54,675 bases of DNA from Nanobdellota archaeon (GTDB taxonomy: Archaea > Nanobdellota > Nanobdellia > Pacearchaeales > GW2011-AR1). Under the pieces are notes generated by a model. That model saw only the letters and a list, made by a program, of their open reading frames with translations. It was not told the origin of the DNA and made no database searches. Positions 1-54,675 of this stretch are shown here, in pieces; the stretch's first letter is position 1, and the number at the start of each line of letters is the position of its first letter. The stretch covers positions 1 through 54,675 of the forward strand of contig JAHITZ010000025.1 of assembly GCA_018817405.1 (NCBI GenBank), in the 5' to 3' direction. The position numbers and the translations under genes are program-made.

Positions 1-141
1 AGGTCGTCAAGAATCGAAGATTCTTGAGCGCAGCCAAGAATTCTACTGTAAGGAATTCTTGGGGTCTTGAGCACAGTCAAGATTTGCATTTACTTTCTCA
101 CGAACTAAAGTAGGGAGTTTACGCAAAATGCAAATCTTGAT
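1..141. repeat. Multi-hairpin repeat element; nt 1-103 identical to the window's last 103 nt
   Basis: Consecutive inverted repeats: CAAGAATC/GATTCTTG (8-26), CCAAGAATTC/GAATTCTTGG (34-62), TCTTGA/TCAAGA (65-82), CAAGATTTGCATTT/AAATGCAAATCTTG (78-139). Confidence 0.9.
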
Positions 142-4274: not shown

Positions 4275-4589
4275 ATGATGGGCAAACCTACCAAATTCAT
4301 GCTCTGCTACATAGCAGGATCTATCATCGGTCTTGGGGCAAGAGCTTGCACAAACATTTCGCAAAAAGCAGCTAGAAATGATTATGCTCCCTCAGAAGTC
4401 ATCCGAGAAGATTATAATAAAGATGGAAGGACAGATCTGCTGATTAGATCAGCAAACGGGTTCCATGAAGAAATCTTTTACGATTTTGAAGGAGAATATA
4501 AGACAACTAGACAGATAGAAGAAACCATGAGAGAAAGAGCTGCTGAAAGAGCTGCTAATTATGTTGAGAAAGCAAGAGGTAATGGGTGA
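4275..4589 (+). CDS. Small secreted/membrane protein with DYNKDGRTDLLI motif
   Basis: Starts MMGKPTKFMLCYIAGSIIGLG; EF-hand/FG-GAP-like DYNKDGRTDLLI. Confidence 0.55.
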   Translation: MMGKPTKFMLCYIAGSIIGLGARACTNISQKAARNDYAPSEVIREDYNKDGRTDLLIRSANGFHEEIFYDFEGEYKTTRQIEETMRERAAERAANYVEKARGNG

Positions 4590-4590
4590 A

Positions 4591-5109
4591 ATGAAATTTC
4601 CAAAAATAACATTCCCAAGAGTCGCAACCGGTTTGTTAGCAGCAGCAATGATAAACATGGCGTGAACTTTTACAACGCTGTGGCTTCGCACCCAAAAACT
4701 CCCGAAATCCCAAAAGCAGTAGTTGAACGCAACACACTTGACAATTACATAGCCAACTCAAGAGGTCTGTTAAATTATAGCGAATCTAATAAACTAGAAT
4801 TAGTGAATCAAATCGACAGCGCAGAAAGGAGACGCGACAAAATAACAAGTCGTCCAGACTGTATTAGATACGAAGAACAATTAACCGCCTACAATAACGA
4901 AATGAAAAAATTAGACAGAAGACTCGGATGGACAGCTATTTCTAGTCTTGGGTGCAGTTTGCTTATGGGGCTTTTCATTAGCAGGGGCCTTACCAAACGG
5001 AAACAGAAACTCTGGCACTCCAACTCAAGAAAGATCATTAGATGAAAGACTCGCAAGACTAGGAGAACTAGACAAGCGAATGGAAAAATATTCCCAGCCT
5101 CAAGAATAA
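4591..5109 (+). pseudogene. Membrane protein gene with at least two frameshifts
   Basis: MKFPKITFPRVATGLLAAAMINMA* in frame 1, body VNFYNAVASHPKTPEIP...RRLGWTAISSLG in frame 0, tail GAVCLWGFSLAGALPNGN...RMEKYSQPQE* in another frame. Confidence 0.5.
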
Positions 5110-19397: not shown

Positions 19398-19496
19398 TTT
19401 TTCTTAAAGATAATTACAAACCCTTGAAGAAATAGGTTCTTAATGAGAGAAAAGTTGTTAAGAAAATTATAAAAAGGAAGTTTGGTCAGTAATAAA

Positions 19497-21297: not shown

Positions 21298-22797
21298 ATG
21301 AAGACACCAACGAAAAAACAAATCAAATTTTCTGCTAAAGAACTTCTTGCATTACTAAAGAAAAGTTTTGATGATTTTGTTAAAGAATCCCCTATTTATT
21401 ATGACGAACATTCTTTATGGTGGGCGTGGGATGACGAGAAAAAATTTTGGAGTATCGTTGATGATGTTTGTGTTCTGAATTTATTTGAAGACTTTTTTGA
21501 CTTGAAAACAGAACAAGTCTCTAAACACTCTGGTTTTATTCTAAAAGTTTTGAGGCAAAAGAGCAGACGCTATAAACCTTTAGACCTACCAGAGTATTGT
21601 GTTCAGTTCAAGAATAAGATTTATAACTTGCGAGAGAAAAAAGAACTTCCTGCAACTCCGAAATACTTTTTAACTGCTCCAATACCTTACGAACTTTCTA
21701 AAAATTCAGAGACCCCAACCATAGACAGACTTTTTGTTGAGTGGGTCGGCGAAAAATATAAACCAACTCTCTATGAAATTTTAGCTTACTCATGTTTGCG
21801 GGAGCAATTCTTACAAACTATTGTAGCTCTCACTGGTGCAGGGAGCAATGGCAAAGGAACATTCCAAAACCTTATCATAAAGTTTCTGGGAAAGGAGAAT
21901 TGTGTTGCTTCAAATATCAAAAGTCTCATCACTCGTTCTTTTGAAACATCTGCGTTGTATAAAAAACTCCTTTGTGTTGTCGGCGAGGTTGATTCTGCTG
22001 ACCTAACAAATACGAACCTTCTCAAGCAACTTACAGGCGAGGACTTAATTCGGTATGAGTTTAAAGGAAAAACTACATTTTCAGAATTATCCCCAACAAC
22101 TTTTATAATCGCAACAAATTCTCTTCCAATTACCCCAGACAAATCAGACGGATTTTATCGGCGTATTCTCACCATTGACTTCCCCAACCAATTCAAACTC
22201 AAAAGAGACTTACTTGCAGAAATCCCAGAAAAAGAGTTTCATAACCTCACCCGCAAGGTTGTAGATGTTCTATTGCGACTCATAGAAACAAATGAATTTA
22301 CAAACGGCGGGGATATTGAAGAACGCCGACGCAGGTATGAGGAACGTTCTAACCCCTTAATGATGTTCGTTTCACAGGACTATGAAGAAGGAGGGGCTGG
22401 TTATGTTAAGTTGAGGGAGTTCTCTAACTCGTTTAACGATTTTCTGAAACAGAAGAAGTTGCGACAATTAACAGTCTCAAAGATTGGGAAATTGTTGAGG
22501 GATGAGGGCTTTGAAGTTTCCACAAGAAAATTCAAGGATGAGACGGGAGAAATCATTGACTCTGCTAAATCTATTATTGGTTTGACAGAAAAATCCCAAG
22601 AAAAAACAAAAAAAATTGAATCGCACCGTATAGTAGAAACTGGTGGTTTGGGTGGTTCAGAAACCACCAGAACCACCGAATCTGGCTATACACCGCAAGA
22701 TAAAATTTTCTGTATAAAATGTAAATCAAACAATGTTCACGCTTATTCAGATATGATATTCTGTGATGACTGCAAACACAAGGAGCAACTAAAATGA
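21298..22797 (+). CDS. D5/P4-like primase-helicase (SF3) with C-terminal zinc ribbon
   Basis: Walker A GAGSNGKGTF, VVGEVDSADL, FIIATNSLPITPDKSDGFYRRILTIDF; CIKCKSN...FCDDCKH. Confidence 0.88.
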   Translation: MKTPTKKQIKFSAKELLALLKKSFDDFVKESPIYYDEHSLWWAWDDEKKFWSIVDDVCVLNLFEDFFDLKTEQVSKHSGFILKVLRQKSRRYKPLDLPEYCVQFKNKIYNLREKKELPATPKYFLTAPIPYELSKNSETPTIDRLFVEWVGEKYKPTLYEILAYSCLREQFLQTIVALTGAGSNGKGTFQNLIIKFLGKENCVASNIKSLITRSFETSALYKKLLCVVGEVDSADLTNTNLLKQLTGEDLIRYEFKGKTTFSELSPTTFIIATNSLPITPDKSDGFYRRILTIDFPNQFKLKRDLLAEIPEKEFHNLTRKVVDVLLRLIETNEFTNGGDIEERRRRYEERSNPLMMFVSQDYEEGGAGYVKLREFSNSFNDFLKQKKLRQLTVSKIGKLLRDEGFEVSTRKFKDETGEIIDSAKSIIGLTEKSQEKTKKIESHRIVETGGLGGSETTRTTESGYTPQDKIFCIKCKSNNVHAYSDMIFCDDCKHKEQLK

Positions 22798-23084
22798 CTA
22801 ATAGTTCAATCCGCACCAGAATTGAAACATTGTTAAGGGAACGGGGACTTAAATGGGTTGATGTGTATTCTAAACTCGGATGGCACAAAACCTTCTCTTC
22901 TAAGGTCTTGAATGGTTTATTTATTCCTCCACTCTGGCAAAGGGTGGCTCTTGCTAAAGAGTTCAACGTTGATAGTTCGGTTATTTGGGATGAACCAAGT
23001 ATTGTTTCGGCTTATGAAATAAAAGGAGAAACCACCCAAACCACCAATTCTCACTATACAGTGCGGGATGAAAAAAATGAATAG
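22794..23084 (+). CDS. XRE-like HTH protein
   Basis: RIETLLRERGLKWVDVYSKLGWHKTFSSKVLNGLFIPPLWQRVALAKEFNVD. Confidence 0.7.
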   Translation: MTNSSIRTRIETLLRERGLKWVDVYSKLGWHKTFSSKVLNGLFIPPLWQRVALAKEFNVDSSVIWDEPSIVSAYEIKGETTQTTNSHYTVRDEKNE

Positions 23085-23838
23085 TCAAGAATACCTTAAA
23101 TCAAAAAACCTCCGAAAAGAAGAACCAGATGAGATAATCATAGACATAGATGACAGAACCGAACATGGAGTTAAATGTTATATGGCTACTGGAATCAATC
23201 TTGTTAATGCTGGTTACTGGATTGAGGTCTGGTATGCTGATGGCATGAAAGAACCCCACATCCACATTAAAAATATTGGTGGGCTTTCAGACTTAACACA
23301 AGAAGAAGGCACAACATATCGTAAGTTATTCTTACAAAAGTTTATTCCCAAAGAGTTCTGGAAAAACAAGCGAGTAAATGACGACTTAGGAGAAATCCCA
23401 GACTATTCAATGTGTGAAAAGTATGAGGATAAGTTTCACCCAATTGCAGAAGAGAACAAACCTCACCACAAATACAAAACTCTCAAAACTTTAAGGTCTG
23501 AATTTAACAAGAACTATCAAAACGCATTAGACTTAGAAATCTATGAGCAAGTTAAGAACCAACTCTCTACCAAAAACACAACCAGAGAAATAACTGGAGA
23601 TGAGCTTTACAAAAAGATAGCAAGTAAAATCTCTATATTTCATATCGCAGACTTGTTTGGATTAACTCCAACTGGAAAGAGATTAAGAGAGTGTCCATTC
23701 CACGCAGATACTAAACCAAGTTTATCTCTTAATGAACAAGAAGGAATCTTTAGATGTTTTGGTTGTAAAGTCTCTGGAAATATTATTAAGTTCTATGCTC
23801 TCCTCAAACAATTAAACCCCAAGTTTAAGATAAAATGA
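23068..23838 (+). CDS. CHC2 zinc-finger primase-related protein, possible AEP-like N-terminal domain
   Basis: CHC2: RLRECPFHADTKPSLSLNEQEGIFRCFGCKVSGNIIKF; N-terminal IIIDIDDRTEH ... EPHIHIKNIGGL. Confidence 0.72.
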   Translation: MKKMNSQEYLKSKNLRKEEPDEIIIDIDDRTEHGVKCYMATGINLVNAGYWIEVWYADGMKEPHIHIKNIGGLSDLTQEEGTTYRKLFLQKFIPKEFWKNKRVNDDLGEIPDYSMCEKYEDKFHPIAEENKPHHKYKTLKTLRSEFNKNYQNALDLEIYEQVKNQLSTKNTTREITGDELYKKIASKISIFHIADLFGLTPTGKRLRECPFHADTKPSLSLNEQEGIFRCFGCKVSGNIIKFYALLKQLNPKFKIK

Positions 23839-24629: not shown

Positions 24630-24875
24630 ATGGAAGAAGAAGTAATAAACCAAATCATTGCGAAGTTAAATGAGTTAGAGGAAACCATTAAGACAGAAAC
24701 ATCAAGACAACCAGAGGTTTGTCGCATTGGAGACTTAACAATTCAGTCTCATTTTCTCCGAGCAGATAAACTTGTTAAGATTGCATTGAAAACTTTGAAA
24801 GATAAATCTGTGGAAAAACACTTTTTTAGTTCTGAATTAAAACGTATGAGGGGAACGAGGGGGTTTGGAGAATGA
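24630..24875 (+). CDS. Hypothetical protein
   Basis: 81 aa, directly upstream of serine recombinase with ATGA overlap. Confidence 0.5.
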   Translation: MEEEVINQIIAKLNELEETIKTETSRQPEVCRIGDLTIQSHFLRADKLVKIALKTLKDKSVEKHFFSSELKRMRGTRGFGE

Positions 24876-25432
24876 GATGTGGACTTTATGTTAGAGTTTC
24901 AACAGGAAGACAGGAAATTCAAAACCAACTCCTTCAATTAAGAGAGTATTGTAAGAAAAATAATTATAAAATCTTTGAAGAATATATTGATGTAATTTCT
25001 GGAAAAGAAACATCAAGACCTTCTTATGATAAGATGTTTCAAGACGCACATAAAAGATTATTCGATTTGGTTTTGTTCTGGGACATTTCAAGATTCTCAA
25101 GAGCAGGAACTTTATTTACATTACAGAAATTAAAAGAACTTGAGAACTTAGGAATTGACTGGGAGAGTTATCAAGAACCTTATTTTAAATCTGTCGGACA
25201 ATTTAAGGATGTTGTCCTTTCAATTATTTCTACTGTTGCAAAAATTGAAAGAGAAAAAATATCTCAACGAACTAAGGCAGGACTTCAAGCAAGTAAGAAA
25301 AGACATCTTGTTGGAAAGAGAGGAAGAGATAAGAGACCACGAAAGATGAGGAAGGATAGAGGATTAAAAAGGGGTCATAAAAAACCATACATAGAATCCT
25401 CTCAAAATCAAATAAATAAAAACCACCGTTAA
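24872..25432 (+). CDS. Serine recombinase/resolvase
   Basis: GLYVRVSTGRQEIQNQLLQLREYC, LVLFWDISRFSRAG, VAKIEREKISQRTKAGL. Confidence 0.93.
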   Translation: MRCGLYVRVSTGRQEIQNQLLQLREYCKKNNYKIFEEYIDVISGKETSRPSYDKMFQDAHKRLFDLVLFWDISRFSRAGTLFTLQKLKELENLGIDWESYQEPYFKSVGQFKDVVLSIISTVAKIEREKISQRTKAGLQASKKRHLVGKRGRDKRPRKMRKDRGLKRGHKKPYIESSQNQINKNHR

Positions 25433-25857: not shown

Positions 25858-26102
25858 CAAAGAAAAAAACCCATCCAAAAAATCCAATAACAATGCCAAT
25901 TACTTCAAATTCTCAAAGACCTAAATTCACAAAGAAAAAAGTCCTATTAGAATTTTCTATAAAGTCATGGGAAAAGTCAGAGCAGTTTATTGAGGAGATA
26001 AAACAATTAAACAAGAAATTTCCCATAACTTCTTTTTGGTGTAGTCCATACGTTGAACCAGACAAACCTATCCCAGTTGAAAGTAACAGGAGGTTGATAT
26101 AA
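25854..26102 (+). CDS. Hypothetical protein
   Basis: Overlapping start (ATGA) in the same gene string. Confidence 0.5.
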   Translation: MTKKKTHPKNPITMPITSNSQRPKFTKKKVLLEFSIKSWEKSEQFIEEIKQLNKKFPITSFWCSPYVEPDKPIPVESNRRLI

Positions 26103-28516
26103 TGGTAAGATTTGGAGAGGCACAGCAACAAGAACTTCCAAGTGAATTAGAAACCCCTGTTAAAATTGCAGAGAGAAGATTTGGTGGCAGTCCACGACTT
26201 CAAGAACTAACTCTTCAAGAACAAAAGAGGAGAGAATTGTTAAGAAAAACATCAAGTTATAGAGATGTTATTGGTGAAATTGAGAGAACAAAATCAAAGA
26301 TTCAACAACTTAATGAAAAAGAAAAATATCTCCAAGAAGGAATTAAAGGTATGCAACAGCGAGGGTTAAATGTTGAAGGGGCATTGGGAGAGCTGGAAGG
26401 TCTTAGAGAGGCAAGACAACAACTACAAAAGTCTATTCCACAACTTCAAACAGCAAGAACATCTGTTGGGAGATTGTTATTAGTAGGAAGAGAACAACAA
26501 GCACAAGAACTTTCACAGGAAGCAAAAGATTTTTCTCTTGTTGGAAGAGTTGATGAGTTTATTCGTTCAAAGGAAAGACAATTTAGAAACATTGCAGTTG
26601 CAGGAAGGATAAAAGGAAGGACACAGGCAAAGATAAAAGCAGTTGAACAAAAGTTTGGAAAACCAATTAGTAAATTAACAGTTGAGGAAGCTAAAACTCT
26701 ATCTCCAATATTAAGAAAACAAATTGGGATAACAATAACCGAGAGAAGAGTTCCAGTAACTCAACCCGAAACACCATCAAGCAAGGATATTCCAACTGAA
26801 TATCAAGATGAAGGGTTTGTTGAACATGGGGAAAAACAACCTGTTGGAGTTATCACCAAACCAGAAGAACCCTCTGGACTTACAGGGGTCATATCTGATA
26901 TAAGAAGATTTAGTTCTGAAATTCAGACAAGAAGAATGAGAGATGAGGAAGTTAAGATTCAAGAAGAAGTATTGAGACTTGGAGGTTTGGGTGTTCTCCC
27001 TTTTTTAGAGGCAGGTTTATTTGTTAAACAAGCTGTTACTCAACCAAAAGAAACTGCCGTTGCAGTAAAAGAGTTTGGAGTAGAGACTGGACAGTTTTTA
27101 TTTGGAAAGGGTAAGTCTCCATTCGCAGATATTGGAAGGATGGCAAGAGAAGACCCCAGAGGGTTCACTGCAAGAGTTGGGGGAGAACTTTTACTGTTAA
27201 AAGGTTCTGGCAAACTAATAAGTCAAATTGAAAAGGGAGCAGAATTAACAAGAGCAAAAATCTCAACAAAATTTAAGGGTGTAACGACAGAGGTTGATGA
27301 TTTAACCAAGTTAGAAAAGAAAACCATCAAAGACATCAAAACCAAGACAGGAAAAGACATTGATATTGGTTTAATCCCTAAAGGTGTTGAGAGAGGAGGA
27401 TTACCGACAATAGACCCAACTTTAAGAGGGGGCTTTGGGTTTACAGTAAAAGAACAGATAGCGTTCACAAAGAAAAGGGGGGTAATTGTAACAGCACAGG
27501 AAGACTTTGTTAAGTTGTTAGACAAACCATTGAAGAGAGAATTGTTTGCAACTCCACCGCTTAAAGAGACTAAGGGATTCGTTAGAGTTAGCAGGTTGGG
27601 ATTAAAACAAAAAGAAGCAACGTTTAAAGATATTCTTCTTGGAGAGGACATTACTTTTAAGAAAACCAAACCTCAAATTATTGCTTTTCCTGATGAGTTA
27701 GTTGGAAGAAGGGGAGGTTTTCAAGCTCAATTAAGAGGTTCAGAGTTAGAAACTGTCTTATACCCCCCAAAAATTCCTAAAAAGGTTGGGGATATTGGAG
27801 TAACGATTATAGAAGGTCGTAGAGTCCCCATTGTTGAGGCAAAGATTGGAGTAACATCAAAACAACTCAATAAAATTCTTTCAACAAAATCAATTTCAGA
27901 ATTAAGTCAAATACAATTAAAAAAATTAAGAGCAGAAACAAGATTTGATTATTCCAGTTATTTGAGACAAACTAAACGTTATGTCTCTCCAACAAAAACA
28001 ACTCTTCCACTTTTTACTTTTGTCAAAACAACAAAACAACCAACAACCATGAAACAAACCTTAAAGAGTTTAGATGTTTCAATTAAGTCTCCAAGTGTTA
28101 AGAGTTTTGACAGAGCCATAACTAAAATATCTCAAAAACCTGTCTCATTGCCTAAAGGTTTTGTTACATTCAGACTTCCGACAACTCCGAGAGGAAAAAC
28201 TGTTGGAAGACCAACTAAAAAGGTTCTTTCACCTTCTCTTTTGGGCAAGAGGGTTGTTAGACCTCCAATAACAACCCCTCTCTTCCTTCAACCTGATAGG
28301 AGGAGAAGACCACGAAAGAAAAGGAGAAAAGACACATTTAAAGATGACATTGCGTTGGTTGAGGGGTTCACAGCAAAGATTTTAAAGTTAAAACCCCTGA
28401 AAATACCAGTAAGTAAACTTAAACTTGCTATACCAAAATACCAGACAGCAGGAATCAGATTAAAACCAATAATAATTCCAGATGACAGACGAAAAAGAAG
28501 AAAGAAAAGACGATAA
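26102..28516 (+). CDS. Large orphan protein, 804 aa, element-encoded
   Basis: Coiled-coil N-terminal third, hydrophobic/Gly segments, very basic C-terminus (DRRKRRKKRR). Confidence 0.75.
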   Translation: MVRFGEAQQQELPSELETPVKIAERRFGGSPRLQELTLQEQKRRELLRKTSSYRDVIGEIERTKSKIQQLNEKEKYLQEGIKGMQQRGLNVEGALGELEGLREARQQLQKSIPQLQTARTSVGRLLLVGREQQAQELSQEAKDFSLVGRVDEFIRSKERQFRNIAVAGRIKGRTQAKIKAVEQKFGKPISKLTVEEAKTLSPILRKQIGITITERRVPVTQPETPSSKDIPTEYQDEGFVEHGEKQPVGVITKPEEPSGLTGVISDIRRFSSEIQTRRMRDEEVKIQEEVLRLGGLGVLPFLEAGLFVKQAVTQPKETAVAVKEFGVETGQFLFGKGKSPFADIGRMAREDPRGFTARVGGELLLLKGSGKLISQIEKGAELTRAKISTKFKGVTTEVDDLTKLEKKTIKDIKTKTGKDIDIGLIPKGVERGGLPTIDPTLRGGFGFTVKEQIAFTKKRGVIVTAQEDFVKLLDKPLKRELFATPPLKETKGFVRVSRLGLKQKEATFKDILLGEDITFKKTKPQIIAFPDELVGRRGGFQAQLRGSELETVLYPPKIPKKVGDIGVTIIEGRRVPIVEAKIGVTSKQLNKILSTKSISELSQIQLKKLRAETRFDYSSYLRQTKRYVSPTKTTLPLFTFVKTTKQPTTMKQTLKSLDVSIKSPSVKSFDRAITKISQKPVSLPKGFVTFRLPTTPRGKTVGRPTKKVLSPSLLGKRVVRPPITTPLFLQPDRRRRPRKKRRKDTFKDDIALVEGFTAKILKLKPLKIPVSKLKLAIPKYQTAGIRLKPIIIPDDRRKRRKKRR

Positions 28517-28729: not shown

Positions 28730-28912
28730 TTACAAAACCTCCCACCAATCTAATACTTTCGTAAATAATGCGACAGTTAAACCTACCAGAATACTAACTG
28801 CAATGGTTTGATTAAACACACTAAATTGTGTCATGACAGCAGAAACAAACCAAAGAACACCGATTACAATTAATATTTCTCTTCTCCTTTTCTTTACTCT
28901 TTTTGAAATCAT
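28730..28912 (-). CDS. Small membrane protein
   Basis: Two TM segments; start overlaps integrase stop. Confidence 0.5.
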   Translation of the reverse strand: MISKRVKKRRREILIVIGVLWFVSAVMTQFSVFNQTIAVSILVGLTVALFTKVLDWWEVL

Positions 28913-29967
28913 TTTGCTACCTGCAATATCTTTTTTAACTTAGGATTTTTTTCTAACTTGTTCCATAAATCCTCCATTTTTTCAAGTCTCTTAATCAATT
29001 CTGCTTTTTCTTCTGGAGGCACGTCTTCAAGTTTGTAAACTGTCTGCAATAAGTTTTCTTTTACGTCTTTAGATGAGAGATGAGTATAGATGTTGCTCAT
29101 ATCTTTCTTATGACCCATAAATTTCTGTGCAACCTTTGGATTATTCAAATAAAGTTCAGTGGCTCGTGTATGACGAATTAGGTAGGGGAAAATATCTCTT
29201 CCCAATGTCTTTTTCCCCATCCCTTTAATCCATAATGTTGCAGACGCTTTTGATATTGGTTCGTTCTGTTTCATTACAGAAGGAAAAACATAATCACCAT
29301 CAACTTCTTCTTTTAACTGTTGAAGATAATAAGTTGATTCTTTTACGAAGACAGTCCTTGCTTTTGATGTTTTAGTTGCGAAGATATGAAGCTCTGATAT
29401 ATCCCCATCAGTATTAAACCTGATATTCTTCCACTTCAAAGTTCTTAATTCAATAGGTCTTAATCCACTTTCATAAAGAGAAATAAAAAAAGTTTTTTTA
29501 GACAAGTTTCTTTCCTTTTGCATGATTTTTTCAATGTCTTGTTTCGTTAATAAAGTTCCTTCGTTTATCTTCTCATGGTTAAATGCTTCCATGAGTCTAA
29601 TATCTTTCAACTCATCAAATCTTTCAGACCATCCTTTGAAATACCATTTGAGAAATCTTTTAACATGAATTTTAGTGCCGTTGGTTGTGTATTTTGTTCT
29701 TCCAGATTTGTTTAAGAGAACAAGATAGTCTCTTAGGTCTTTAAGGTTAATTTCTTTAAATGGTTTTTCAATAATGTCTCTAAACTGAAGAATGTTTGCT
29801 TTAATGTCATTGAGTTTGTTTTGTCCAGAACCAATTGCACAATAAGAAATAAAGTCATCAACAATTTTCTTTTCTGCGTTAGTGAGTTTGTTATAGAGTT
29901 GTTCTTTGTTGATTCTTAATTTTCTATATTCTGGATATGATTTTTTCATTAAGAGAATAAGAGGCAA
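28909..29967 (-). CDS. Tyrosine recombinase/integrase
   Basis: ESGLRPIELRTLKWKNI, YLIRHTRATELYL, MGHKKDMSNIYTHLS (R..HxxR..Y). Confidence 0.92.
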   Translation of the reverse strand: MPLILLMKKSYPEYRKLRINKEQLYNKLTNAEKKIVDDFISYCAIGSGQNKLNDIKANILQFRDIIEKPFKEINLKDLRDYLVLLNKSGRTKYTTNGTKIHVKRFLKWYFKGWSERFDELKDIRLMEAFNHEKINEGTLLTKQDIEKIMQKERNLSKKTFFISLYESGLRPIELRTLKWKNIRFNTDGDISELHIFATKTSKARTVFVKESTYYLQQLKEEVDGDYVFPSVMKQNEPISKASATLWIKGMGKKTLGRDIFPYLIRHTRATELYLNNPKVAQKFMGHKKDMSNIYTHLSSKDVKENLLQTVYKLEDVPPEEKAELIKRLEKMEDLWNKLEKNPKLKKILQVAK

Positions 29968-30013
29968 GGATTATTTAAACCTTTTTGGTTTAACTTAATT
30001 ATAAACCCTTGAA

Positions 30014-30056
30014 GAGGAGGTTTAATTCAAGCTAAACAGATGAATTAAACGTCCTC
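30014..30056. other. Candidate core recombination (att) site
   Basis: GAGGAGGTTTAATTCA-11 nt-TGAATTAAACGTCCTC, 15/16 inverted match, 47 nt from int start. Confidence 0.5.
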
Positions 30057-44311: not shown

Positions 44312-45268
44312 ATGTCAGTTAGCGCACATGCAGGAAAAAACAAAACAACAGCTTTCCTACTTTCAGCATTTATCATCGCCATGCTCATACTTGCAGGACC
44401 GGCACAAGGCTTCTCCCTAAATCTAACACTAGACAACCAAAACCCAGCTCAAGGAAACATAATCACATTTACCGCAGAAATCACAATCCCTGCAGGAGAA
44501 CAACTGCCAATAGATTTCCTAAATCTAGAACTCACAGGCCCAGAAACCCAAACCTGCAAATTCACACCCCAAGGCCAAATAATCGAAGGATGCAAAGACA
44601 TAACAATAACCCCCTCCCAAGACGCAAACTTCGGCTATGGTTACGGATACAACTATTTCGGATTTGGTTATGGTTACGGATACAACTTCGGCTACGGTTA
44701 CGGTTATGAATCTGGCAAACTAAAATATAAAATCACCCTCAACACTGCCAACTACCAAATCGGCGACTATACAACAGAACTAAAAGTCAAAATACAAAAC
44801 AATGAGTTCTCAGAACAAGGACCTGGATTCACAATTCATCAAGTAAGTAGTGGCGGAGGAGGCTGCAGAACAGCCTGGCAATGCACAGAATGGAGCAAAT
44901 GCACCGACGGCATTCAAACAAGAACTTGCGAAAAAGTAAAAATCAATTGTTACGCAGACCCAGCACCAGAGCAGACAATGACATGCACCACAGAATCTGA
45001 AACATTAGCAGGCCAAAACAACCAAAATCAAAATGAACCAATAGACTTAAATCTTGAACAAGACGATGAACAAACCAAAGAACAATTTGTTTCAAGAATA
45101 ACAGGAGCAGTTACAGGAGTTGTAAGCGATGCATTAAACTCAAAAAAAGGAATCATCGTGCTCATCATGATGGTTTCTATTGTTGCAGCACTAAGCATTG
45201 TTGTCTGGATTAAAAGAATAAAGTACCAAAAATCAAATCTCTCACCAAGTAGTTTTTACCATTCTTAA
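44312..45268 (+). CDS. Secreted surface protein with YGYGY-rich and TSP1-like segments (paralog 1)
   Basis: Signal peptide; GYGYGYNYFGFGYGYGYNFGYGYGY; WQCTEWSKCTDGIQTRTC; C-terminal TM. Confidence 0.82.
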   Translation: MSVSAHAGKNKTTAFLLSAFIIAMLILAGPAQGFSLNLTLDNQNPAQGNIITFTAEITIPAGEQLPIDFLNLELTGPETQTCKFTPQGQIIEGCKDITITPSQDANFGYGYGYNYFGFGYGYGYNFGYGYGYESGKLKYKITLNTANYQIGDYTTELKVKIQNNEFSEQGPGFTIHQVSSGGGGCRTAWQCTEWSKCTDGIQTRTCEKVKINCYADPAPEQTMTCTTESETLAGQNNQNQNEPIDLNLEQDDEQTKEQFVSRITGAVTGVVSDALNSKKGIIVLIMMVSIVAALSIVVWIKRIKYQKSNLSPSSFYHS

Positions 45269-45316: not shown

Positions 45317-46195
45317 ATGGCTAAAAGCAAGATTTTCTCACTTTTGTTTACAGCATTTGTAATAGGACTCCTTGTCGTGACAGGCCCTGTGCAAAGTTTT
45401 TCTCTAGACTTAGATTTAAACAAAATCCGTCCAGAAAAAGGAGAAACAATTACATTCACAGCAGATATCACAATTGACTCTGGAGAAAGAGTGCCAATAG
45501 ATTTCCTAACTTTAGAACTCACAGGCCCAGAAACCCAAACATGCAAATTCACACCCCAAGGCCAAATAATCGAAGGATGCAAAGACATAACAGTGACAAA
45601 GCTCCAGGATTCAGATTATGCTTACGGTTATGGGTATAATTTTGGATATGGTTACGGCTTTACCGAAGGAAAACTATCTTACAGAATCAGATTAGACACA
45701 TCAGATTACAAGACCGGAGAGTACACAACAGAATTAAAAGTTAAAATTCAAAACGATGAATTCTCAAAAAAAGGACCAAAATTGACAATAAAAAATAAAT
45801 CTGGAGGCGAGCCTGTCTGCTATCCAGAATGGGACTGCGACGCTTGGAGCCCTTGCATCCAAGGTTTGCAATTCAGAACCTGCTACCGAAATCTTAATTA
45901 CTGCTATATTGAAGAAAAACCCATAGAAGAAAGAACATGCTCAGTAGAAAGTGATGCACAATACAAAGACACAATGATTATACTGAACACAGCTCAAGAA
46001 AACAAAAACATTCCACCAGAAACCAAATCAACTATAACACTCTCAAGCCTCGGCTTCAGCGAAGGCCTGCAGTTTATAATTATCCTGCTACTATTGAACT
46101 GCATCATAACTACATTAAATATTATTGTTAAAGTAACAAAGCTCCGAAATTACAGAAAAAGGCGCTTCCAAAACTTGCGAAAAAATAAAAAGTAA
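45317..46195 (+). CDS. Secreted surface protein with YGYGY-rich and TSP1-like segments (paralog 2)
   Basis: YAYGYGYNFGYGYGF; WDCDAWSPCIQGLQFRTC; C-terminal TM. Confidence 0.82.
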   Translation: MAKSKIFSLLFTAFVIGLLVVTGPVQSFSLDLDLNKIRPEKGETITFTADITIDSGERVPIDFLTLELTGPETQTCKFTPQGQIIEGCKDITVTKLQDSDYAYGYGYNFGYGYGFTEGKLSYRIRLDTSDYKTGEYTTELKVKIQNDEFSKKGPKLTIKNKSGGEPVCYPEWDCDAWSPCIQGLQFRTCYRNLNYCYIEEKPIEERTCSVESDAQYKDTMIILNTAQENKNIPPETKSTITLSSLGFSEGLQFIIILLLLNCIITTLNIIVKVTKLRNYRKRRFQNLRKNKK

Positions 46196-54572: not shown

Positions 54573-54675
54573 AGGTCGTCAAGAATCGAAGATTCTTGAG
54601 CGCAGCCAAGAATTCTACTGTAAGGAATTCTTGGGGTCTTGAGCACAGTCAAGATTTGCATTTACTTTCTCACGA
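54573..54675. repeat. Terminal direct repeat, identical to nt 1-103
   Basis: Base-by-base identity over 103 nt. Confidence 0.97.

What the first reader, a model, noticed from the sequence alone, without database searches (positions are those of the whole stretch)
22623..23064. About 36-nt repeat family (one inverted, two direct) inside replication genes
Revcomp of 22623-22658 (GAACCACCCAAACCACCAGTTTCTACTATACGGTGC), 22660-22696 (GAAACCACCAGAACCACCGAATCTGGCTATACACCGC) and 23028-23064 (GAAACCACCCAAACCACCAATTCTCACTATACAGTGC) are clearly related. The first two form a ~74-nt palindrome in the linker before the helicase zinc ribbon; the third is at the 3' end of the XRE gene. They could be origin iterons, autoregulatory sites bound by the XRE protein, or another in-frame palindromic insertion.
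Basis: seen in the sequence. Interest (0 to 1): 0.75.

Follow-up and report, generated by a model that had tools for sequence, protein, structure and literature searches.

The report
Replication origin inside a helicase gene
The repeats are most likely the binding sites where a small mobile element in a DPANN archaeon starts copying its DNA; they lie inside the gene for the helicase that probably reads them, and relatives from viruses to plasmids carry the same kind of 9-letter repeat at the same place, which makes this an unusual version of a known type of origin.

Summary
The three repeats are real, exactly placed and DNA-level: the inverted similarity was never reached in 200,000 codon-resampling trials. 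They lie in a ~10.6 kb integrated element (tyrosine integrase, candidate att sites) in a DPANN archaeal genome. Each ~37-nt copy is two 9-nt iterons (AACCACCNR AACCACC) plus a tail with CTATAC. Among 61 non-redundant D5/P4-type helicase genes, the region around the helicase 3' end has a strong 9-nt period (34/61 against 1/61 in gene bodies; other lags near background). In 27 elements the paired iterons occur nowhere else in the fetched DNA. Relatives usually have convergent inverted arrays around a ~45-nt interior rich in CTATA. The same spacing is annotated in phage P4 crr and visible in the pRN1 'stem-loop' origin. Best explanation: the element's replication origin, read by the helicase's own C-terminal winged helix, as in SaPI Rep and SCCmec Cch2. 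Unusual here: the origin is coding (it encodes the disordered linker before a zinc ribbon), its halves are inside-out, and a third half-site lies 370 bp downstream in the next gene. XRE-operator and palindromic-insertion readings are not supported. New variant of a known kind; no binding or replication was tested.

The parts
22623..22658 (-). half-origin copy 1: tail + two iterons, minus orientation; encodes helicase residues ~443-454
22660..22696 (+). half-origin copy 2: two iterons + tail, plus orientation; encodes helicase residues ~455-467; its iterons are 4 nt from those of copy 1
23028..23064 (+). half-origin copy 3: two iterons + tail, inside the 3' end of the next gene
22642..22657 (-). 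iteron pair AACCACCCA AACCACC of copy 1 (9-nt spacing)
22662..22677 (+). iteron pair AACCACCAG AACCACC of copy 2
23030..23045 (+). iteron pair AACCACCCA AACCACC of copy 3
22628..22633 (-). CTATAC box in the tail of copy 1
   Evidence: sequence; CTATA/CTATG is enriched in the interiors of relatives
22686..22691 (+). CTATAC box in the tail of copy 2
23054..23059 (+). CTATAC box in the tail of copy 3
21298..22797 (+). D5_N/DUF5906 (P4-family) SF3-type helicase, 499 aa: AAA+ core, C-terminal winged-helix region (~353-431), disordered linker (434-468), zinc ribbon (~472-494)
22794..23084 (+).
23068..23838 (+). 256-aa protein with a C-terminal DnaG-type CHC2 zinc finger; probable primase component
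28909..29967 (-). tyrosine recombinase (integrase) of the element
19398..19430 (+). candidate attL: ...ATTACAAACCCTTGAAGA
   Evidence: repeat D14; uninterrupted site in a congener
29983..30015 (+). candidate attR: ...ATTATAAACCCTTGAAGA, next to the integrase gene
   Evidence: the congener continues with the same GAGGAGGTTTAA sequence

Best explanation
The repeats are the replication origin (or its initiator-binding core) of a ~10.6 kb integrated plasmid- or virus-like element in a DPANN archaeon. The D5/P4-type helicase encoded here probably binds the 9-nt AACCACC iterons through its own C-terminal winged helix, assembles as hexamers on the iteron pairs, opens the adjacent CTATAC-containing DNA and starts replication, with the downstream CHC2-zinc-finger protein acting in priming. 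Because 9 is a multiple of 3, the iterons can be read in frame, and they encode the disordered linker between the winged helix and a C-terminal zinc ribbon. SHOWN here: the repeats, their DNA-level constraint, the family-wide 9-nt arrays at helicase 3' ends, their absence elsewhere in each element, and the helicase's relation to the SaPI5 primase-helicase. INFERRED: binding, hexamer loading, melting, which half-sites are active, and origin activity itself.
For: (1) 61 non-redundant homologous helicase genes: best lag-9 segment around the 3' end averages 10.98, with 34/61 scoring >=10, against 1/61 in gene bodies; every other lag from 5 to 30 averages 4.6-6.7. Other ORF ends in the same loci: 10/273 against 30/61 for helicases, Fisher P = 1e-17. 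(2) In 27 elements, lag-9 iteron pairs occur only within 330 nt of the helicase stop and nowhere else in the fetched DNA. (3) 30 loci have convergent inverted arrays; CTATA/CTATG occurs in 18 of 60 half-interiors against 3.9 expected, and all three window copies have CTATAC there. (4) Close relatives L013 (47%) and L081 (51%), plus L018 and L035/L004, have in-frame arrays at the homologous position with different letters. (5) Iteron divergence tracks divergence of the winged-helix region (Mantel p = 0.0025; partial, given the ATPase domain, p = 0.0045; 24 loci). (6) The only PDB sequence match and the top fold match is the SaPI5 primase-helicase 7OLA. (7) Tested precedents: SaPI Rep and SCCmec Cch2 bind iterons just downstream of their genes with the C-terminal domain (PMC7581432); P4 type 1 repeats at 4314 and 4323, 9 nt apart, lie at the 3' end of the alpha gene.
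Against: No binding, replication-intermediate or copy-number data. GC skew in the element gives no clear origin signal. In the window the two halves diverge (iterons inside, tails outside), whereas relatives are convergent, and each array has two iterons rather than three, so this copy may be rearranged or partly decayed. Arrays were not detected in some relatives (L014, L023, L044, L108 and several halophile or cyanobacterial plasmids). The winged-helix correlation is modest (r = 0.23), and several iteron units (the window's, L013, L018, L035) were entered by eye.
Confidence: 0.85

Rival explanations
1. The repeats are operator sites for the small 'XRE' protein (22794-23084), which regulates the replication operon; copy 3 lies in its own gene.
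For: One copy lies in the gene, and small DNA-binding proteins often autoregulate. Palindromic sites suit dimeric repressors.
Against: The sites lie inside coding sequence within and downstream of the genes, not at the promoter upstream of 21298. The protein has no family match and no relative in 371 genomes of the phylum, while arrays persist in L013 and L081, whose next genes are unrelated. The unit is a tandem 9-nt pair, not a dyad operator.
Confidence: 0.05
2. A palindromic mobile or selfish DNA unit inserted in frame (like Rickettsia palindromic elements or MITEs), with a second insertion in the next gene.
For: In frame, palindromic, encodes a disordered linker, and three related copies are present.
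Against: No second locus in the ~1.07 Mb genome and none in 371 genomes of the phylum. Relatives have unrelated letters at the same place with the same 9-nt period, in or just outside the gene, which an insertion does not explain.
Confidence: 0.03
3. A protein-level tripeptide-repeat linker (ETT-RTT / ETT-QTT) under selection as peptide; the DNA similarity is a by-product.
For: Copies 2 and 3 are in the same frame and encode ETTRTTESGYT / ETTQTTNSHYT.
Against: Copy 1 is inverted and encodes HRIVETGGLGGS. Codon resampling cannot reproduce the inverted similarity (0 of 200,000). In many relatives the same array is non-coding.
Confidence: 0.02
4. Recombination or resolution sites (res-like) for the small serine resolvase at 24872-25432, or an RNA hairpin controlling expression of the operon.
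For: A resolvase-domain protein is encoded ~2 kb downstream. The single strand folds well (z = -5.3).
Against: Iterons of this kind follow the helicase gene across the family. Arms of inverted iterons fold for free, so the hairpin is not independent evidence. Rfam finds no RNA family here.
Confidence: 0.03

Closest known systems
Phage P4 crr / alpha protein
   Same: P4-family primase-helicase; 8-nt type 1 repeats with 9-nt spacing (4314 and 4323) and inverted copies, at the 3' end of the alpha gene; iteron sites can be far apart (ori and crr).
   Different: P4 repeats are TGTTCACC and crr lies beyond the alpha stop codon, in two 120-bp direct repeats; P4 also has a separate ori with 10-11 nt spacing.
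SaPI Rep origin and SCCmec Cch2 origin
   Same: D5-type helicase, origin immediately downstream of its gene, short iterons bound by the C-terminal domain (PMC7581432); closest solved structure is SaPI5 primase-helicase 7OLA/7OM0. The Cch2 site has three 5-nt iterons in 23 bp, which would fit 9-nt spacing (inference).
   Different: Bacterial; non-coding; other iteron letters.
pRN1-family plasmids of Sulfolobus (orf904)
   Same: Archaeal P4-family replication protein with the required site 3' of its gene. The arms of the published stem-loop read TGTCCATAG TGTCCAACT and its exact inverse, i.e. two 9-nt-spaced iterons per side.
   Different: The authors described a stem-loop and stated that there is no iteron structure (PMC4234260); the site is non-coding.
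Phage lambda ori within gene O
   Same: Iterons located inside the coding sequence of the initiator that binds them (PMC4488673).
   Different: 19-bp iterons, unrelated initiator without a helicase domain, no inverted arrays.

Membership tests
P4/SaPI-type (D5-helicase) iteron origin | A D5/P4-family helicase with a C-terminal winged-helix-like domain is encoded at the site | tested here: met
   DUF5906 and TIGR01613 above cut-off, D5_N at the cut-off; model with C-terminal helix/strand domain ~353-431; best match 7OLA
P4/SaPI-type (D5-helicase) iteron origin | Short direct repeats at or next to the 3' end of the helicase gene | tested here: met
   Three iteron pairs within 330 nt of the stop codon, none elsewhere in the 10.6 kb element
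P4/SaPI-type (D5-helicase) iteron origin | 9-nt iteron spacing (rule found here in homologues; annotated in P4 crr) | tested here: met
   AACCACCNN AACCACC in all three copies; family rule; P4
P4/SaPI-type (D5-helicase) iteron origin | Convergent inverted arrays flanking an AT-rich or CTATA-containing interior (usual layout of close relatives, not a published requirement) | tested here: not met
   In the window the arrays are back to back with tails outside; no facing partner was found
P4/SaPI-type (D5-helicase) iteron origin | Helicase binds the iterons and the site drives replication | not testable with these tools
   Needs EMSA and a replication assay
XRE-protein operator | Site conserved with the regulator gene and placed at its promoter | tested here: not met
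   No relatives of the protein in 371 genomes; arrays occur without it; site is within coding sequence
Palindromic coding insertion (RPE-like) | Dispersed copies in the genome | tested here: not met
   Only one locus in the genome

The most novel reading that the evidence does not exclude
D5/P4-family self-loading helicases of archaea and bacteria share one origin grammar: inverted sets of 9-nt iterons around a short CTATA-containing interior, at the 3' end of the helicase gene and often inside it. The iteron letters are matched to the helicase's winged helix. The pRN1 'stem-loop' origin belongs to this group, and the window's element uses an inside-out, coding version with a third half-site in the next gene.
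Probability: 0.5. Interest if true: 0.65.

Novelty: new variant of a known kind. Interest (0 to 1): 0.52.

Why it matters
It turns an odd repeat into a predicted origin with its predicted reader, in DPANN archaea, where little is known about how mobile elements replicate (own judgement). The period-9 rule lets origins be located from sequence in many uncultured viruses and plasmids, predicts which helicase reads which iteron, explains tripeptide-repeat tails of these helicases as origin DNA, and suggests that the pRN1 stem-loop origin is an iteron origin. All of this can be tested with short synthetic DNA and purified helicase domains.

Tried and rejected
Exact-pattern scans of IMG/VR and of 371 genomes of the phylum for the window's own letters found nothing relevant (L015 is taken as a chance match); the letters are element-specific, and only a search by helicase homology showed the rule. 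GC skew as an origin signal: uninformative. The 103-nt terminal repeat of the window suggested a circle, but it is a dispersed repeat with 21 matches in the genome, so the window is most likely a chromosomal contig ending in a repeat. Searching for further half-sites with mismatches in the window gave only weak, distant matches. Megablast of the element against phages: no match. The SaPI origin papers (Ubeda 2007, 2012) are not held. Literature searches found no report of in-frame 9-nt iterons in D5 helicase genes; the library is partial.

Full report
OBSERVATION. The repeat finder lists copy 1 and copy 3 as a 36-nt inverted pair, 86% complementary. The core AACCACCNNAACCACC matches exactly only at these three places in 54.7 kb. 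Copies 2 and 3 are in the same reading frame (ETTRTTESGYT, ETTQTTNSHYT), so I tested whether protein sequence alone could explain the similarity. With codons resampled from the element's own usage and the proteins kept fixed, the inverted similarity of copy 1 to copy 3 (29/34) and to copy 2 (22/34) was never reached in 200,000 trials (best 25 and 19), and the direct similarity of copies 2 and 3 (29/37) was reached 5 times. The repeat is a DNA feature.

SETTING. The window is contig C45 of a ~1.07 Mb, 66-contig genome. Genomes of the same class contain contigs whose lengths equal those of named Pacearchaeota and Woesearchaeota contigs (45,287 and 23,893 bases), so the host is taken to be a DPANN archaeon (inference). 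The 103-nt direct repeat at the contig ends is a dispersed repeat, not evidence of a circle. The repeats lie in an integrated element of ~10.6 kb between a ribosomal protein gene block and a gene for an ScpA-like protein. A tyrosine integrase (28909-29967) sits next to one copy of a candidate att repeat, ATTAYAAACCCTTGAAGA (19398-19430 and 29983-30015). A congener has an uninterrupted site, ATACAAACCCTTGAAGAGGAGG, downstream of the same ribosomal genes, although with a different gene in between.

THE GENES. 21298-22797 is a D5_N/DUF5906, P4-family helicase. A structure model (mean pLDDT 71, moderate; the ATPase core is partly low) has a helix/strand domain at ~353-431, a disordered segment 434-468 and strands at the zinc ribbon. 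The palindrome encodes residues ~443-467, within the disordered segment. The only sequence match in the PDB and the best fold match is the SaPI5 primase-helicase 7OLA/7OM0. The next protein (96 aa) has no family match, so 'XRE' is unproven. The following one has a DnaG-type CHC2 zinc finger; in relative L013 a Prim-Pol domain, a weak CHC2 match and the helicase are one protein.

THE RULE IN RELATIVES. The nearest viral relative found first, L013 (47% identity), has in its helicase gene, at the same place, AACCATTAGAACCATTCAAACCATTAG and its inverse. L004, L005 and others show the same with other letters. In 61 non-redundant helicase genes the best self-match at lag 9 around the 3' end averages 10.98, and 34 of 61 reach 10; gene bodies reach it in 1 of 61, and all other lags from 5 to 30 average 4.6-6.7. 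Ends of other ORFs in the same loci reach 10 in 10 of 273 against 30 of 61 for the helicases. In 27 elements with a defined iteron, lag-9 pairs occur only within 330 nt of the helicase stop and nowhere else in the fetched DNA. The usual layout is three iterons, an interior of about 45 nt, and three inverted iterons. The interior is enriched in CTATA/CTATG (18 of 60 half-interiors, 3.9 expected), and all three window copies carry CTATAC after the iterons. In the closest relative, L081 (51%), the interior starts AATTCTCACTCATCTTCTATATG; copy 3 continues AATTCTCACTATAC. The array may be in frame (window, L013, L018, L081, L035, L094, L097 and others) or just after the stop codon.

WHO READS IT. 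The iteron letters change between elements, as expected of initiator-specific sites. Across 24 loci iteron distance correlates with the distance of the helicase's winged-helix region (r = 0.23, Mantel p = 0.0025), also after removing the ATPase-domain distance (p = 0.0045), and not the other way round. The effect is modest and some units were entered by eye. Published work on relatives agrees: SaPI Rep and SCCmec Cch2 bind iterons directly downstream of their genes through the C-terminal domain (PMC7581432). Phage P4's annotated type 1 repeats stand 9 nt apart in crr, at the 3' end of the alpha gene. A putative rep_origin is annotated in phage Sfi11 starting inside the primase gene; its repeats are spaced 8, not 9, nt.

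pRN1. The pRN1 origin was described as a stem-loop without iterons (PMC4234260). Its arms read TGTCCATAG TGTCCAACT and the exact inverse, and pHEN7 has TGTCACCAC TGTCACAAC with an inverted partner and a 58-nt interior. This is my reinterpretation; the published mutations that required restored stem symmetry fit a structural role at least as well, so it needs a test.

WHAT IS UNUSUAL IN THE WINDOW. The array is coding, has two iterons per half rather than three, the halves are inside-out (iterons 4 nt apart, CTATAC boxes outside), and a third half-site lies 370 bp downstream. No facing partner was found. P4, with its separate ori and crr, shows that distant iteron sites can belong to one replicon (that both are needed is established knowledge). 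The layout could also be a duplication product or a partly decayed origin in an integrated element; I cannot tell which half-sites are active. In-frame iterons have a precedent in lambda ori within gene O (PMC4488673).

VERDICT. Origin iterons read by the element's own helicase: confidence 0.85. New variant of a known kind. Binding, melting and replication are inferred, not shown.

Noticed in passing
window 1-103 and 54573-54675: Identical 103-nt sequence at both contig ends; 21 matches in the same genome, several at contig ends: a dispersed repeat that probably broke the assembly.
   Followed up: partly
L111 (pRN1), ~55-150 nt after the stop at 5030, and L051 (pHEN7), ~80-180 nt after the replication gene: The arms of the published pRN1 stem-loop origin consist of two 9-nt-spaced iterons per side, although the paper says there is no iteron structure.
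   Followed up: partly
L013 9333-9352 and 9407-9426: A perfect 20-nt inverted repeat with a 54-nt spacer just after the iteron array; its first arm overlaps the helicase stop codon. Function unknown.
   Followed up: no
window 26102-28516: 804-aa protein in the element with only a weak match to archaea-specific SMC-related proteins (E = 2e-4, far below the curated cut-off).
   Followed up: no
window 24872-25432: A 186-aa serine-recombinase N-terminal-domain protein in the same element as a tyrosine integrase.
   Followed up: no
window 44444-44652 and 45431-45639: 209-nt direct repeat, 79% identical, with tandem 25-nt TTCGGCTATGGTTACGG-type units nearby, outside the element.
   Followed up: no
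L047, from ~0 to 140 nt after the helicase stop (2559): A relative in another genome of the class uses the same heptamer (AGGTGGTTC x3) and has a further outward-facing array beyond the convergent pair, the only hint of a layout like the window's.
   Followed up: partly
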